Shown here in pieces: positions 15,097-19,134 of a DNA stretch of 27,310 bases (positions within the stretch are counted from its first letter, which is position 1; each line of letters starts with the position of its first letter). The stretch covers positions 1-27,310 of the IMG/VR virus record IMGVR_UViG_3300017752_000119; one strand, 5' to 3'. The notes under the pieces are model-generated. The model did not search any database. It was given only the letters and a program-made list of their open reading frames with translations, and was not told the DNA's origin. The position numbers were made by a program, and so were the translations under genes. The DNA comes from a virus.

Positions 15097-15720
15097 CTAG
15101 ACGCCAGTTTCGTCATATTTTGTTGTTCTACTATACACTATTGCCTTGTATTTGTCAACATCAAAATCAAGAAAAGGACGGTACTTGATTAACTTTCGCC
15201 GTTCTTCTTTCCAAAAGAAATCATCTTTCAGTGTCTTGTCCCAATATGACAAATAATTATTAATACTGTCTAGTATCAGCATCGTTTCGATTGTTACATC
15301 TCCGCGACTGTACATTTGTAGTAGCAGAGGATGTTGCTCATCTTTTACTACAAAGCATTTGTCAAACTTATTTACTTCCTCATAAGTAAGTTCTGAACAA
15401 ATCTCTTCTAGGTCATTCTCAAGGTTCTTTGTTAAACTCTGAAGGCGACCTTTCCATTTATTATAGACTTGTAGTGCCTCTTCGTAAATGAAAGCACCAC
15501 CCCATCTATTACCGTCAACATGATTAGCAATCAAGAACTTCGGCAACTCATCATCATTAAACTCTTTTGCTAGTTTAATAAAATTGAATTGGTCACTTCT
15601 TTTATAGAAGGTCTCATTCTTTGTTTTGACTGCACCTCTAGTCTTGGTGATATCATATCTATCTGTTGTGAAATGTAACTTGAAAGCAAGGTACACATTA
15701 AAAGCATCGAATTCATTCAT
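15097..15720 (-). CDS. 59: Helicase loader gp59
   Basis: 207 residues from ATG 15720 (T4 gp59 is 217). It matches gp59 along its length: FDAFNVYLAFKLHFTTDRYD at the start, YKRSDQFNFIKLAKEF, then FIYEEALQVYNKWKGRLQSL, and late DVTIETMLILDSINNYL with LIKYRPFLDFDVDKYKA. gp59 loads gp41 helicase onto gp32-coated forked DNA and gates leading-strand synthesis. I chose 15720 because its ATGA overlaps the upstream stop, the usual coupling; an in-frame ATG at 15744 would add eight residues. It precedes gp32, as in T4, and a sigma70-like promoter lies ~90 bp upstream. Confidence 0.92.
   Translation of the reverse strand: MNEFDAFNVYLAFKLHFTTDRYDITKTRGAVKTKNETFYKRSDQFNFIKLAKEFNDDELPKFLIANHVDGNRWGGAFIYEEALQVYNKWKGRLQSLTKNLENDLEEICSELTYEEVNKFDKCFVVKDEQHPLLLQMYSRGDVTIETMLILDSINNYLSYWDKTLKDDFFWKEERRKLIKYRPFLDFDVDKYKAIVYSRTTKYDETGV
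15130..15158 (-). promoter_or_regulatory. 32: Sigma70-type promoter of gp32
   Basis: TTGACA at 15158-15153, 17-bp spacer, TATAGT at 15135-15130, inside the 3' end of gp59. The predicted start is near 15123. With the late octamer ~40 bp downstream it gives gp32 early and late transcription. Confidence 0.78.
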
Positions 15721-16304
15721 ACGAAAGGTTTGCCGCATATCCATCCTACTAAACTATAACGAGTACCCTCTGTTACGGGAGTTACTCTATGAAACATAAA
15801 ACTAGGGAACACTATAGCACATCCTAACTTAGGTGTCAAGGTAATAGTGCGTTCTTTTTCATGTGGCGCACCTACTTCAAATTCAAAGTTACCACCTTCG
15901 TAGTCTGTGTTAAGAATAATAGAAAAACTAATCTTTCTAATTTTACCATATAACTCATCATCTGTGTAAGGTGTGCTTCTCTGGTCGGCGTGCCAATCAT
16001 AATGTTGTTTCTTAGAACCTTCATACTTTGTGAACTGTAAATCTTCAATCATATCATAATCAAAGTTCCAATTATTATTTACGTTCTCCATATAAATCAT
16101 ATTAAGTATTGGACCAAACATAAATTCTGTTTGTTGATTTCTTTTGAACCAAGCAATAGAACTTTTTCTATGACCTTCTATCGCCTCTTCTGTACCATCA
16201 ATTTTCGCAGGTTCAATATTATCATTGCCCATTTGAATTATCTTTGAAATGGTAGCATCATCAAGTACTCTTTTAGTTTCTGAAAATTGATACTTTAAAA
16301 TCAT
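15717..16304 (-). CDS. 2OG-Fe(II) oxygenase, prolyl-4-hydroxylase-like
   Basis: 195 residues with the double-stranded beta-helix motifs of 2-oxoglutarate/iron oxygenases: iron ligands H105 and D107 in YDWHADQ, distal H172 in FPSFMFHRVTPV, and the 2OG-binding R182 in EGTRYSLVGW. Also typical is the strand FSIILNTDYEGGNFEF. The general family hydroxylates protein side chains or small molecules; the substrate here is unknown. It is wedged between gp33 and gp59, sharing ATGA overlaps with both, so it is co-translated with the replication/late-transcription cluster. One of three 2OG-type genes in the window, and distinct in sequence from the other two. Confidence 0.9.
   Translation of the reverse strand: MILKYQFSETKRVLDDATISKIIQMGNDNIEPAKIDGTEEAIEGHRKSSIAWFKRNQQTEFMFGPILNMIYMENVNNNWNFDYDMIEDLQFTKYEGSKKQHYDWHADQRSTPYTDDELYGKIRKISFSIILNTDYEGGNFEFEVGAPHEKERTITLTPKLGCAIVFPSFMFHRVTPVTEGTRYSLVGWICGKPFV
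15811..15839 (-). promoter_or_regulatory. 59: Sigma70-type promoter inside the oxygenase gene, ahead of gp59
   Basis: TTGACA at 15839-15834, 17-bp spacer, TATAGT at 15816-15811. The predicted start near 15804 is ~85 nt before the gp59 ATG. It lies within coding sequence, so it needs experimental support, but box identity and spacing equal those of the intergenic sites. Confidence 0.6.
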
Positions 16305-16552
16305 ATAGGCAATACCGCTGTCTTAGGAAGATAGTTCAGTTCCTGTGCAGTTACTTCTACCTTCTCTTTTAGAGTTCGCGAGACATACTTGCGAATGTCT
16401 TCAGGTTCAAGTTGATGCTCTTCACAATAATGTAGAATTGCATCCATATAGTTAAGTTCTTTTTCTCTGACTATCCTCTCAACAATCAAAGAGAACCTTT
16501 TTGGGGTCATAGGTTCAACAACCTTTTCTAGGTCTATAATATCATCATTCAT
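16301..16552 (-). CDS. 33: Late transcription coactivator gp33
   Basis: 83 residues (T4 gp33 is 112; marine homologues are shorter). Characteristic pieces are MTPKRFSLIVERIVREKELN, YMDAILHYCEEHQLEPEDI and TLKEKVEVTAQELNYLPKTA. gp33 bridges host RNA polymerase beta-flap and the sliding clamp gp45 and, with sigma gp55, activates late promoters; this fits the TATAAATA octamers seen here. The ATG is three bases past the hydrolase stop, and the TGA stop overlaps the oxygenase start (ATGA). Placement beside gp59/gp32 mirrors T4. Confidence 0.9.
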   Translation of the reverse strand: MNDDIIDLEKVVEPMTPKRFSLIVERIVREKELNYMDAILHYCEEHQLEPEDIRKYVSRTLKEKVEVTAQELNYLPKTAVLPI

Positions 16553-16555
16553 GTT

Positions 16556-17056
16556 CTAATCCCATCTATAAAAAATGTGGTCATCAATTCTTCCTATTCT
16601 TGTTTTTTCTTTATTCCATTTAGGGTTAACGTAAGTGGCATGATAGTGTGTGGCACCCTCAATCATACCAGCATATCTGTTAGTCAGTATTCTACTCACT
16701 AATCTTAGTATTTGTTGATAATGTTCAATGTTAGTAATGATTTCTGGTTTACCATCGCAGAACCAAGAGAACTGACATTTATGTTTTCTAGGAACATCTT
16801 TACCTTTTTCTTCTTTCCACCACTTTGAATATTGTGCTTGATATACAACCCCGCAAATCGTGTTAGGAAATCTACTATCACGCACACGATTGATAACAAC
16901 AAGACCTACTGCTATTTGTCCTGCAGTAGATTGTGATTTCGCTTCGTGATATATGTTGTTAGCAAGACATGTTCTAGAATTTGTCTCAGGTGGTTTTACT
17001 TCTTCAGCAAATGCGCTTGATGCAAGTAAAAGAAATGGTGCAATATATTTAATCAT
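16556..17056 (-). CDS. Secreted cell-wall hydrolase, SleB/CwlJ type
   Basis: 166 residues from ATG 17056. Signal peptide 1-17 (MIKYIAPFLLLASSAFA, cleavage before EE). The hydrolase_2 core has CLANNIYHEAKSQSTAGQIA (30-49) with presumptive catalytic E38, VGLVVINRVRDSRFPNTICG, and the typical FSWFCDGKP and GATHYHA. This family cleaves peptidoglycan, so the enzyme acts in the periplasm. A longer frame opens at ATG 17092, but that codon lies on the -35 box of the gene's own promoter; the -10 TATACT ends only 7 nt before ATG 17056, so the message should be leaderless. It precedes gp33. Confidence 0.88.
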   Translation of the reverse strand: MIKYIAPFLLLASSAFAEEVKPPETNSRTCLANNIYHEAKSQSTAGQIAVGLVVINRVRDSRFPNTICGVVYQAQYSKWWKEEKGKDVPRKHKCQFSWFCDGKPEIITNIEHYQQILRLVSRILTNRYAGMIEGATHYHATYVNPKWNKEKTRIGRIDDHIFYRWD

Positions 17057-17063
17057 AGAATAC

Positions 17064-17092
17064 AGTATACTATAACTTTCTATGTTTGTCAA
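17064..17092 (-). promoter_or_regulatory. Sigma70-type promoter of the SleB-like hydrolase
   Basis: TTGACA at 17092-17087, 17-bp spacer, TATACT at 17069-17064. The expected start (17057/17056) coincides with the ATG, predicting a leaderless mRNA. The -35 and a box upstream (CTTTTACCATAA) repeat those of the tmRNA promoter. Confidence 0.82.
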
Positions 17093-17151
17093 GACTAATT
17101 ATGGTAAAAGTGTCACTTTTCTGTTGCAAGGTAAGTGACCAACCCCACAGA

Positions 17152-17196
17152 TTATGCCGCTAAGGCGTACTCTGTATGTGCAAAGTTATCGTTTGC
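17152..17196 (-). other. ssrA: tmRNA tag-peptide reading frame
   Basis: GCA resume codon at 17196-17194, then 13 more sense codons and TAA at 17154-17152, encoding ANDNFAHTEYALAA; with the alanine from charged tmRNA the tag is 15 residues. The start ANDN and end ALAA match proteobacterial tags (E. coli AANDENYALAA); the ANDNFA opening is alphaproteobacteria-like. Confidence 0.93.
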
Positions 17197-17282
17197 CTTT
17201 GTAGTGTTTGACCAATTACGCAGTCACCCGACAGTTCTACTCTTTCTTATCTACGTCAGTCGATCCTATTTCGCCCCCATCA

Positions 17283-17400
17283 TAAACACACTAAAGTCCA
17301 AGATATTTAATTCTCTTCTTCTCAGCATTCTCAACATAATTTCTATACCACTTAAATCTCAAAAAGAATTTTTCCATCGTAGACTGCTCCCGTGTGTTTA
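17283..17400 (-). repeat. Inverted repeat bounding the tmRNA intervening segment
   Basis: TAAACACAC at 17283-17291 is the perfect inverse of GTGTGTTTA at 17392-17400. In the precursor RNA these 9 bp stack onto the acceptor stem through four bases each side (ACCA against TGAT, three of four pairing), giving a helix of about 20 bp that closes the intervening loop. Confidence 0.88.
17291..17377 (-). CDS. 28-residue ORF inside the tmRNA intervening segment
   Basis: ATG at 17377 to TAG at 17291-17293. GGGAG at 17391-17387 lies nine bases upstream, immediately after the inverted-repeat arm. The peptide starts MEKFFLRFKWYRNYVENAEK and is strongly basic and amphipathic. The stop overlaps the other arm by one base, so the ORF exactly fills the loop. 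No homologue recognised. It could be a real microprotein, a processing-coupled element or chance; the fit to the loop and the Shine-Dalgarno argue against pure chance. Confidence 0.5.
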   Translation of the reverse strand: MEKFFLRFKWYRNYVENAEKKRIKYLGL

Positions 17401-17471
17401 TGGTGGAGGCGGTGGGTATCGCACCCACGTCCTGTCCGTCATTCAGATTGTATCAACAAACTGTAATCTTA

Positions 17472-17500
17472 TTTATACACTAGTTGACAAGATTTGTCAA
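17472..17500 (-). promoter_or_regulatory. ssrA: Promoter of tmRNA: sigma70 and late consensus combined
   Basis: TTGACA at 17500-17495, 17-bp spacer, TATAAA at 17477-17472. The -10 continues as TATAAATA (17477-17470), the late octamer. A perfect dyad, TTGACAA-GAT-TTGTCAA (17484-17500), covers the -35, a possible operator. Predicted start near 17465. Confidence 0.85.
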
Positions 17501-17523
17501 GTACTTTTATGGTAAAAGATATT

Positions 17524-17901
17524 CTAATAAGAAGTAGGTATACCCTTAGTAGGTTTAACCAGAACATTAGTGTTAACTTCTAGTCCTTCTCCAGGAGATA
17601 AAAAACAAGTCGCTTTGCTTACATGTAGATATTCTAGAATTGTTGTAGTGCCTGTATCTAGATTTGCTAGAACTTCCACTGTAGTTTGCTCACTACTCAC
17701 CCATCGCATCACACCAACTTCACCAAATTTAGCATTAAGATTTTTCTTAACCAAATCATAATTATCAGTCGTACAGTTAACTGGTTTCTGTGCTTTATAA
17801 ATTCTAGGTGATTTATCTGTAGGTTCTATCGCAAACGCATATCCGCAATAAAAAGATATGCTAAGAAGTATCAGATAGTGCGGTAAGTATTTCTTGAACA
17901 T
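17524..17901 (-). CDS. Secreted/periplasmic small protein, unknown
   Basis: 125 residues. A clear signal peptide at 1-24 (MFKKYLPHYLILLSISFYCGYAFA, cleavage after AFA) precedes a ~100-residue domain with two cysteines (in VNCTTDNYD and ATCFLSPGEG) that could form a disulfide in the periplasm. Predicted strands GVMRWVSSEQTTVEVLANLD and TTTILEYLHV suggest a small beta domain. The start has AAGGAG, and the first 41 bases overlap the end of the upstream oxygenase, so the two are coupled. Not recognised; possible superinfection-exclusion or lysis-accessory roles are speculative. Confidence 0.78.
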   Translation of the reverse strand: MFKKYLPHYLILLSISFYCGYAFAIEPTDKSPRIYKAQKPVNCTTDNYDLVKKNLNAKFGEVGVMRWVSSEQTTVEVLANLDTGTTTILEYLHVSKATCFLSPGEGLEVNTNVLVKPTKGIPTSY

Positions 17902-18448
17902 TTGTATCTCCTTGGTTCTGCATATTAAAATTGAAAGGCATCGTTAATCGATATCTCTCAGTATTATGCGGTGGCATTTCATGCTCTAACCACCCAGGAA
18001 ATAAAACAACCTTTCCCTTTTCTGCCTTTATGGAAGTAGGAGTAAAGTTAAATACCTGCGGTCTTGGATCATAAAAATTTGTATGTCCAATATCGTCATA
18101 ATACACAATAGCACATACCATGTCTTTATCACCATGGTTGTGTTTAGAGTGAGTGCAACCCCTTTGAACATAATTAAAAAAACTCATATCAATAGTTGCA
18201 CGCCGCCTAAAAACTTGTGTGACATGATTTGTTACTAACCTATTTATCATAGAAGTAAAAGGACCAAAACCTTCGGTGGTGAGGTCTACATTATAAGAAG
18301 AGTAATACCAAGATACACCACTATTGTTTTTGTTTTTAGTATAGTGATCCACAAGTTCAGTTCGTGAATTATCTATTATATGCTCATCTATAAAATATTC
18401 ATATAGGGAAGTTGCGAATAGTTGATGATGTGTTATACCATCAATCAT
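17861..18448 (-). CDS. 2OG-Fe(II) oxygenase (2OG-FeII_Oxy_5-like)
   Basis: 195 residues. The oxygenase motifs are HSKHNHGD (H105 and D107 as likely iron ligands), VCAIVYYDD, NFYDPRP, then KGKVVLFPGWLEHEMPPHNT with distal H156, and ERYRLTMPFNF with the 2OG-contacting arginine. This is the compact phage-type family commonly seen in T4-like marine viruses; the substrate is unknown. The start ATG shares one base with the stop of the nuclease gene (TGATG), and its end overlaps the secreted-protein gene. It is therefore in an operon of nuclease, oxygenase and secreted protein. Confidence 0.88.
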   Translation of the reverse strand: MIDGITHHQLFATSLYEYFIDEHIIDNSRTELVDHYTKNKNNSGVSWYYSSYNVDLTTEGFGPFTSMINRLVTNHVTQVFRRRATIDMSFFNYVQRGCTHSKHNHGDKDMVCAIVYYDDIGHTNFYDPRPQVFNFTPTSIKAEKGKVVLFPGWLEHEMPPHNTERYRLTMPFNFNMQNQGDTNVQEILTALSDTS

Positions 18449-19134
18449 CAGATACCCTTCGCCTCTCTATACGCTTCTCTGACAGATAGGTACTCACCGA
18501 TGTAATCATCACGCTTCTTAACAAACAACTGCGCCTCACCACCTTCTACAGCGATTAGAATAGCAATCTGGTCGATAGGTATGCCTGTCATCTCTTCAAA
18601 CATAACAGCATATGCACTACCTTGCATAAAGTAGTTTGTGATATACTTTTCGCTCTTTGGTTTACTAGATGTTTTGAAATCAATAATTGATAATCTATTA
18701 TCAAAATGCCCAATGCAATCTACGCGACCTGCAGTCTGTAGATGTCTAGAAAATAATGTCTTTTCTTGAAAGTAGATATTATCAATACGATGCAACAAAG
18801 GTTGAATAGCATTGAACATAGACTTCTCAGCAGGTCCTTCAATCTTAGGTTCTTTATTATTAAGATAGTCTTCACACTGATAGTGAAATCTAGTTCCTCT
18901 TGAGGATGCTTGTCTGCTAATTTTGTTCGCCGCTTCATCGCCGACACGTTTGCGCCATTCCATGATACCTTTGCGGGTATGCCAACCTAAGACTGTAGTA
19001 ACTGAAGGCATCTTCACACCATCAGGTGTTACATACAGTCTTAGGTCTTTGCTTTGTTCAGTCAGTAGTTCAGGAATACCAACTGTAAAATTATTCAAGT
19101 GTGTAAAGTGTTTTCGTTCCACGACATTATCCAT
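18448..19134 (-). CDS. RecB/Cas4-like PD-(D/E)XK exonuclease
   Basis: 228 residues with the PD-(D/E)XK core: a conserved SSRGTRFHYQCEDYL (77-91, motif I region), GRVDCIGHFDNRLSIIDFKT with D139, D152 and K154, and the following Q171 in FMQGSAYA, typical of RecB/Cas4-like nucleases. No Cys cluster for an iron-sulfur centre, so it is not a Cas4 proper. It probably acts in recombination or DNA processing; similar single-domain nucleases are common in marine T4-like phages. A sigma70-like promoter lies directly upstream, leaving a leader of about 9 nt and no Shine-Dalgarno. Confidence 0.85.
   Translation of the reverse strand: MDNVVERKHFTHLNNFTVGIPELLTEQSKDLRLYVTPDGVKMPSVTTVLGWHTRKGIMEWRKRVGDEAANKISRQASSRGTRFHYQCEDYLNNKEPKIEGPAEKSMFNAIQPLLHRIDNIYFQEKTLFSRHLQTAGRVDCIGHFDNRLSIIDFKTSSKPKSEKYITNYFMQGSAYAVMFEEMTGIPIDQIAILIAVEGGEAQLFVKKRDDYIGEYLSVREAYREAKGI

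What the first reader, a model, noticed from the sequence alone, without database searches (positions are those of the whole stretch)
17112..17465. Phage-encoded circularly permuted (two-piece) tmRNA
On the minus strand the CCA-bearing acceptor piece precedes the coding piece. All seven acceptor pairs form, with G3-U70; the T-arm, the GGATCGAC element, a tag frame ANDNFAHTEYALAA-stop and a downstream stem/pseudoknot are present. Full conserved architecture argues for a functional RNA rather than a remnant. Permuted tmRNAs are established for alphaproteobacteria and some cyanobacteria and betaproteobacteria; in a T4-like phage this implies capture from, or adaptation to, such a host. A phage tmRNA could rescue ribosomes stalled by mRNA decay during takeover, tag proteins with a phage-specific tail, or outcompete host tmRNA for SmpB.
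Basis: partly seen in the sequence, partly recalled or inferred. Interest (0 to 1): 0.92.

Follow-up and report, generated by a model that had tools for sequence, protein, structure and literature searches.

The report
Phage tmRNA carrying a hidden gene
A marine T4-like phage carries its own two-piece ribosome-rescue RNA (a kind of phage gene already reported), and the stretch that should be cut out when this RNA matures holds a small protein gene, which appears to be a hitherto unnoticed cargo slot in many such phages.

Summary
ARAGORN and two Rfam models (110 bits each) call a circularly permuted alpha-type tmRNA on the minus strand, tag ANDNFAHTEYALAA, in a T4-like pelagimyophage relative.

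In alphaproteobacteria it is about 33 nt (8-14 nt in small marine-type genomes). In phages it is often 100-500 nt and then filled by one or two Shine-Dalgarno-led small ORFs: 33 of 69 unselected spacers of 100 nt or more at p<=0.01, against about 0.7 expected. Several unrelated ORF families recur there, evolving as proteins: pN/pS 0.14-0.34 in frame, 0.48-3.7 in other frames. One family also exists as an ordinary gene. Occupied and empty loops occur between otherwise near-identical phages. A covarying 9-12-bp helix clamps the loop. The window's own ORF (17291-17377) has relatives in seven other phage loops. I found no earlier description.

The parts
17470..17500 (-). Promoter-like motif: TTGACA (17500-17495), 17 nt, TATAAATA (17477-17470), which reads both as a sigma-70 promoter and as the T4 late-promoter box
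   Evidence: read; TATAAATA within 130 nt upstream in 276 of 371 phage permuted tmRNAs against 1 of 150 bacterial ones; TTGACN-N15..19-TATAAA in 152 of 263 distinct phage loci, median 70 nt before the CCA end
17401..17461 (-). Acceptor piece: T-arm 17432-17412, acceptor 3' strand CGCCUCC 17411-17405, ACCA 17404-17401
   Evidence: RF04321 and RF01849 alignments
17392..17400 (-). Clamp helix, 5' strand (UAAACACAC)
   Evidence: pairs with 17291-17283; covariation across 229 phage loops
17279..17400 (-). Intervening segment (122 nt), predicted to be excised when the tmRNA matures
   Evidence: phage spacers median 122 nt, n=371; bacterial median 33 nt, n=150
17387..17391 (-). Shine-Dalgarno-like GGGAG of the nested gene
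   Evidence: SD-led ORF p=0.006 against 500 dinucleotide shuffles
17291..17377 (-). Nested small protein gene, 28 aa, MEKFFLRFKWYRNYVENAEKKRIKYLGL, stop UAG
   Evidence: relatives L549, L551, L553, L577 (E 4e-5 to 2e-4), grouped with L083, L570, L575; cluster pN/pS 0.39, in-frame 0.23 against 0.69 and 1.12
17283..17291 (-). Clamp helix, 3' strand (GUGUGUUUA); its first base is the last base of the ORF's stop codon
17112..17278 (-). Coding piece: acceptor 5' strand 17278-17272, D-like GGAUCGAC, tag frame 17196-17152 (ANDNFAHTEYALAA*), terminal stem 17139-17133 / 17118-17112
17524..19134 (-). Upstream neighbours: exonuclease (PHROG 298), 2OG-Fe(II) oxygenase, short unknown ORF
16301..17050 (-). 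Downstream neighbours: cell-wall hydrolase (PHROG 938) and late-transcription coactivator gp33 (PHROG 254); helicase loader gp59 and gp32 follow, a similar order to Melnitz and Mosig

Best explanation
The locus is a phage ssrA gene of the permuted alphaproteobacterial type with a small protein gene nested in the loop between its two halves. One precursor is transcribed from a promoter that could be read by host RNA polymerase and by the phage late machinery. The acceptor and T-arm half and the tag half fold together, and a 9-bp clamp helix beyond the CCA closes the loop. Host tRNA-processing enzymes should cut after CCA and before GGGGG, giving a two-piece tmRNA that recycles stalled ribosomes and adds ANDNFAHTEYALAA. 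The loop is translated from its own GGGAG site, before or after excision, to give a 28-aa basic peptide. Across phages the loop acts as an exchangeable cargo slot for small, often membrane-spanning, phage proteins. Shown by sequence: the tmRNA architecture, the promoter motif, the clamp, the nested ORFs, their protein-level selection, the existence of one family outside tmRNA, and occupied and empty loops. Inferred: transcription timing, processing, translation, and the peptide's role in host takeover.
For: tmRNA calls and scores. Spacer length: phage median 122 nt against bacterial median 33 nt; 8 and 9 nt in two SAR116 genomes and 9-14 nt in small genomes with ALAA-type tags. SD-led ORFs in 33 of 69 unselected phage spacers of 100 nt or more at p<=0.01, but 1 of 47 of 60-100 nt and 0 of 11 bacterial spacers of 60 nt or more. 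pN/pS lowest in the ORF frame for six of seven clusters tested: 0.14-0.34 against 0.48-3.67. The WSICAD peptide lies inside 75 tmRNA loops and also as a free-standing gene; in a 148-kb record and a 26-kb contig it is free-standing while the tmRNA loop is only 8 and 32 nt; in L430 and L477 it lies just upstream of the tmRNA. L042 (266-nt loop, 75-aa ORF) and L474 (32-nt loop) are 97-99% identical next to the loop on both sides. Clamp pairs 1-9 are 85-99% paired, eight of them 95% or more; where both columns vary, shuffled partners give about 50%, with C-G/G-C and A-T/T-A exchanges.
Against: No RNA or peptide was measured. The window's own ORF is short (28 aa) and its single-sequence p is only 0.006; the case for it rests on distant relatives (best E 4e-5 in a small database). 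Five cluster-3 pairs are few for a frame control. About half of the long phage loops give no significant ORF under my criteria; several look structured rather than coding. Nested ORFs match no PHROG at a useful level, so their function is unknown. The shuffle test demands ATG and an SD, so it may both miss and select.
Confidence: 0.82

Rival explanations
1. It is an ordinary phage two-piece tmRNA as published, and the ORF in the spacer is a chance open frame with no product.
For: The tmRNA itself needs no ORF; Mosig and several relatives have short or non-coding loops. The window ORF is only 28 codons.
Against: Excess of SD-led ORFs in unselected loops, protein-level selection in the ORF frame only, homologues of one family elsewhere as ordinary genes, and the window ORF's relatives in other loops.
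Confidence: 0.12
2. The loop ORF is regulatory: a ribosome translating it controls folding and processing of the tmRNA precursor (leader-peptide logic), and the peptide itself matters little. In the WSICAD type the 5' clamp strand AAAGGAGAU is itself an SD, so ribosome binding and clamp formation would exclude each other.
For: SD and stop codons sit at or in the clamp strands; stops cluster at -4, -10, +10 and +39 relative to the coding piece. In 38 of 135 loci the stop lies inside the coding piece, so translation would run into the acceptor stem.
Against: Selection on amino-acid sequence, many unrelated ORF families, and free-standing copies of one family away from tmRNA argue that the protein product matters.
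Confidence: 0.15
3. The phage tmRNA is a decoy that titrates SmpB or a degenerate remnant, as suggested for the tRNA-like fragment of phage DS6A, and does not tag proteins.
For: A tRNA-like-domain-only phage tmRNA inhibits host tmRNA when expressed in E. coli (PMC11915505, PMC4131195).
Against: The window has a full tag frame and coding domain. All 85 nested-ORF loci called by ARAGORN have tags starting with A and ending in AA, 84 of them starting with AN, while the middle varies (ARAGORN itself may favour such ends).
Confidence: 0.08

Closest known systems
Two-piece tmRNA of Methylophilales phage Melnitz and Pelagibacter phage Mosig (Buchholz et al. 2022, PMC9004378)
   Same: T4-like Kyanoviridae, alpha-type permuted ssrA between a PD-(D/E)XK nuclease region and gp33/gp59/gp32; TTGACA and TATAAATA upstream in Melnitz. 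Melnitz also carries an unannotated loop ORF, MFKWLSKTRLVVITRDYFRERNRKADAKIPKYLSG....
   Different: Melnitz has a glutamine riboswitch right after the tmRNA (52.8 bits); none is detected in this window, where a cell-wall hydrolase lies between tmRNA and gp33. The loop ORF is not annotated in the Melnitz record, nor mentioned in the passages of the paper that I read. Mosig's loop is short (about 45 nt) and I see no SD-led ORF in it.
Alphaproteobacterial permuted ssrA (RF01849; Caulobacter type)
   Same: Order of pieces, acceptor with G3-U70, T-arm, ANDN... tag, conserved 3' GGGGUU...ACC..GCAACAGAA element.
   Different: Host loops have a median of 33 nt and no ORF in the sample examined; the phage loop is 122 nt with an ORF.
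Introns that host protein genes (for example group I introns with homing endonuclease genes; group I introns occur in some tmRNA genes, PMC11915505)
   Same: A protein gene sits inside a segment removed from a structured RNA.
   Different: No self-splicing; the loop is expected to be removed by tRNA-type processing and the halves are not rejoined; the cargo is not an endonuclease but small, varied phage proteins.

Membership tests
Permuted (two-piece) tmRNA, RF04321 / RF01849 | Covariance-model score above the curated cut-off, end to end | tested here: met
   110.6 bits against 47 and 110.1 against 50
Permuted (two-piece) tmRNA, RF04321 / RF01849 | CCA-bearing acceptor half precedes the coding half | tested here: met
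   CCA to 17401, GGGGG from 17278 on the minus strand
Permuted (two-piece) tmRNA, RF04321 / RF01849 | Alanine identity: G3-U70 in a 7-bp acceptor stem | tested here: met
   GGGGGCG / CGCCUCC
Permuted (two-piece) tmRNA, RF04321 / RF01849 | Tag frame with Ala resume codon and hydrophobic ...AA end | tested here: met
   ANDNFAHTEYALAA*, 17196-17152
Permuted (two-piece) tmRNA, RF04321 / RF01849 | Maturation into two RNA pieces | not testable with these tools
   needs RNA-seq or northern blot from infected cells
Permuted (two-piece) tmRNA, RF04321 / RF01849 | Binding of SmpB, aminoacylation, tagging of proteins | not testable with these tools
   biochemistry needed
Melnitz-type tmRNA with glutamine riboswitch | glnA riboswitch (RF01739) directly 3' of the tmRNA | tested here: not met
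   none up to E 5 in 16500-18500; present in Melnitz
Nested-ORF tmRNA loop (proposed here) | Spacer longer than in hosts, closed by a clamp helix | tested here: met
   122 nt; 9-bp clamp
Nested-ORF tmRNA loop (proposed here) | SD-led ORF filling the loop beyond chance | tested here: met
   28 codons, 69% of the loop, p=0.006
Nested-ORF tmRNA loop (proposed here) | ORF homologous to loop ORFs of other phages and under protein-level selection | tested here: met
   cluster 3, eight sequences, pN/pS 0.39; in-frame 0.23 against 0.69 and 1.12 from five pairs only

The most novel reading that the evidence does not exclude
The loop of permuted phage tmRNA genes is a general cassette site: tmRNA maturation releases a hairpin-clamped mini-mRNA for an exchangeable takeover peptide. 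In the subset whose stop codon lies inside the coding piece (38 of 135 loci; not the window), RNase P cutting would strip the stop codon, turning the cargo message into a nonstop mRNA that the tmRNA itself would silence, so peptide synthesis would be tied to tmRNA maturation.
Probability: 0.25. Interest if true: 0.88.

Novelty: new variant of a known kind. Interest (0 to 1): 0.72.

Why it matters
Phage two-piece tmRNAs were known, but only as RNA genes. If their excised loop routinely carries a protein gene, one phage transcript makes both a ribosome-rescue RNA and a small protein, and a class of phage genes is missed because annotators mark the stretch as tmRNA only. The loops give a ready list of short, selected, mostly membrane or basic peptides in marine phages. 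The cultured Melnitz-OM43 system carries such a loop, so the idea can be tested directly.

Tried and rejected
A glutamine riboswitch downstream, as in Melnitz: not found in the window. Permuted tRNAs in loops with T-arm-like stretches: ARAGORN on linear and circular loops found none in 112 loops of 55 nt or more. PHROG matches for nested ORFs: none useful. Nested ORF homologues in sequenced phages: only the four Melnitz records for the MFKW type, none for the WSICAD type. Pattern TCYTTTTTGATGGGGG... was mistyped and returned nothing. Searches selected for SDs or for the peptide, so loci found only there were left out of the excess-ORF count. Acceptor pairing in my own extraction was imposed as a filter and is not used as evidence. 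Literature searches for an ORF in the tmRNA intervening segment found nothing, but subscription papers and preprints are not covered.

Full report
WHAT IS THERE. The minus strand of 17061-17495 carries one tmRNA gene, permuted, with tag ANDNFAHTEYALAA (ARAGORN). Rfam models for permuted tmRNA (RF04321) and alphaproteobacterial tmRNA (RF01849) match it end to end at 110.6 and 110.1 bits, more than twice their cut-offs. From the sequence: T-arm 17432-17412; acceptor strands 17411-17405 and 17278-17272, pairing seven of seven with G3-U70; ACCA to 17401; tag frame 17196-17152; a terminal stem 17139-17133 / 17118-17112.

WHOSE IT IS. The baseplate protein at 286-2241 is closest, at about 45% identity, to phages Melnitz (host OM43), Mosig and HTVC008M (host Pelagibacter). 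Neighbours on the minus strand are PhoH, an endolysin, an exonuclease, a 2OG oxygenase, the tmRNA, a cell-wall hydrolase, gp33, another 2OG oxygenase, gp59 and gp32. Melnitz and Mosig have their tmRNA in a similar setting. By inference this is a distinct lineage of the same T4-like group.

Buchholz et al. 2022 (PMC9004378) described the two-piece tmRNA of Melnitz, its alphaproteobacterial affinity, 53 two-piece tmRNAs among phages (50 aquatic), and proposed maintenance of the hijacked machinery or selective tagging. They placed it after an early promoter. The window and many relatives have TTGACA-N17-TATAAATA, where TATAAATA is also the T4 late box: it occurs within 130 nt upstream of the CCA end in 276 of 371 phage loci against 1 of 150 bacterial loci. 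Most bacterial controls are richer in G+C, so the fixed spacing (median 70 nt to the CCA end) is the stronger argument. Early and late use are both possible.

WHAT WAS OVERLOOKED. The segment between the pieces, 17400-17279, is 122 nt. In 150 bacterial permuted tmRNAs the median is 33 nt, with 2% at 100 nt or more. In 371 phage loci the median is 122 nt; that set is partly selected for long loops, and the first, less selected sample gave a median of 85 nt.

THE LOOP HOLDS GENES. In loci found through the tmRNA coding piece, 69 distinct spacers were at least 100 nt. Of these, 33 contain an SD-led ATG ORF that about 1% or fewer of dinucleotide shuffles match, and 40 pass at p<=0.05; about 0.7 and 3.5 are expected. 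Among 47 spacers of 60-100 nt only one does. None of 11 bacterial spacers of 60 nt or more does. Across all loci, 135 such ORFs form nine clusters with at least three members and ten singletons; clusters 1 and 3 look related, and membership of the TM-rich cluster 2 may partly reflect shared hydrophobic composition and the shared VFMMGAK end. L036 carries two ORFs in a 499-nt loop, and WSICAD-type loops carry two overlapping ORFs (read from the sequences).

THEY EVOLVE AS PROTEINS. Pooled pN/pS is 0.31 (69 sequences), 0.48 (19), 0.42 (11), 0.39 (8, including the window), 0.33 (5) and 0.14 (3). On ungapped pairs the ORF frame gives 0.14-0.34 in six clusters, the other two frames 0.48-3.67; a seventh cluster has too few changes to tell. 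The window ORF MEKFFLRFKWYRNYVENAEKKRIKYLGL aligns with L551, L549, L553 and L577 (46-56% identity, E 4e-5 to 2e-4) around a shared KYLG end.

THEY MOVE IN AND OUT. The WSICAD membrane peptide lies inside 75 tmRNA loops; the remaining 44 pattern matches are a mix of loops cut by contig ends or with divergent acceptors, free-standing genes and unrelated frames. In a 148-kb record the free-standing gene lies about 7.4 kb from a tmRNA with an 8-nt loop; in a 26-kb contig the loop is 32 nt. In L430 and L477 the gene lies just upstream of the tmRNA. L042 has a 266-nt loop with a 75-aa ORF and L474 a 32-nt loop; the 100 nt before and 180 nt after the loop are identical, and kilobases beyond are 96-99% identical. 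L076 and L304 have 99% and 97% identical flanks but unrelated loop ORFs. The tmRNA stays and the cargo changes.

THE CLAMP. Beyond the CCA the loop's two ends form a helix of usually 9-12 bp. In 229 distinct phage loops pairs 1-9 are paired in 85-99% of sequences, eight of them in 95% or more; at the most variable positions shuffled partners pair in about half, and C-G/G-C, A-T/T-A and G-T alternatives occur. In the window the clamp is 17400-17392 with 17291-17283; the SD follows the 5' strand at once and the stop codon ends on the first base of the 3' strand. Stop codons across loci cluster at -4 (the UGA of the UGAU linker), +10, -10, +39 and -15 relative to the coding piece.

HOW IT LIKELY WORKS. 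Inferred: one transcript gives a two-piece tmRNA after cuts after CCA and before GGGGG, and the loop is translated before or after release; its paired ends would protect a released loop from exonucleases. The cargo is probably a small takeover, membrane or lysis-related peptide; that role is a guess from size and hydrophobicity. In 38 of 135 loci the stop codon lies within the coding piece, so processing would leave a nonstop message, a possible feedback worth testing. The window is not in that subset.

LIMITS. No expression data. Contigs are metagenomic apart from Melnitz, whose four isolates all carry the MFKW ORF. The window ORF alone would not convince; the family does. Literature coverage is limited to open-access papers.

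Noticed in passing
window 17484-17500 (minus): Inverted repeat TTGACAA-atc-TTGTCAA covers the -35 hexamer of the tmRNA promoter and could be an operator.
   Followed up: no
window 17064-17092 (minus): A second near-consensus promoter, TTGACA-N17-TATACT, lies between the tmRNA and the cell-wall hydrolase gene.
   Followed up: no
L424, L426, L451: Phage tmRNA tag ANDNIANDNYSEYRLAA repeats the ANDN motif twice, as if the start of the tag had been duplicated.
   Followed up: no
L013, L020, L024, L057, L077, L079 loops: Some phage tmRNA loops without ORFs contain T-arm-like stretches such as GGGTTCAAGTCCC; ARAGORN finds no tRNA even on circularised loops.
   Followed up: partly
L423 16468-16806 (Mosig): ARAGORN's tag for Mosig, GEDNFALAA, begins with Gly instead of Ala: an unusual resume codon or an ARAGORN misplacement.
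   Followed up: no
L669: A 103-nt loop encodes a cysteine-rich 25-aa peptide, MKVCWCKVKDTIKQCWCFCKKKCGC.
   Followed up: no
window 15717-16304, 17861-18448: Two 2OG-Fe(II) oxygenase genes flank the tmRNA region.
   Followed up: partly
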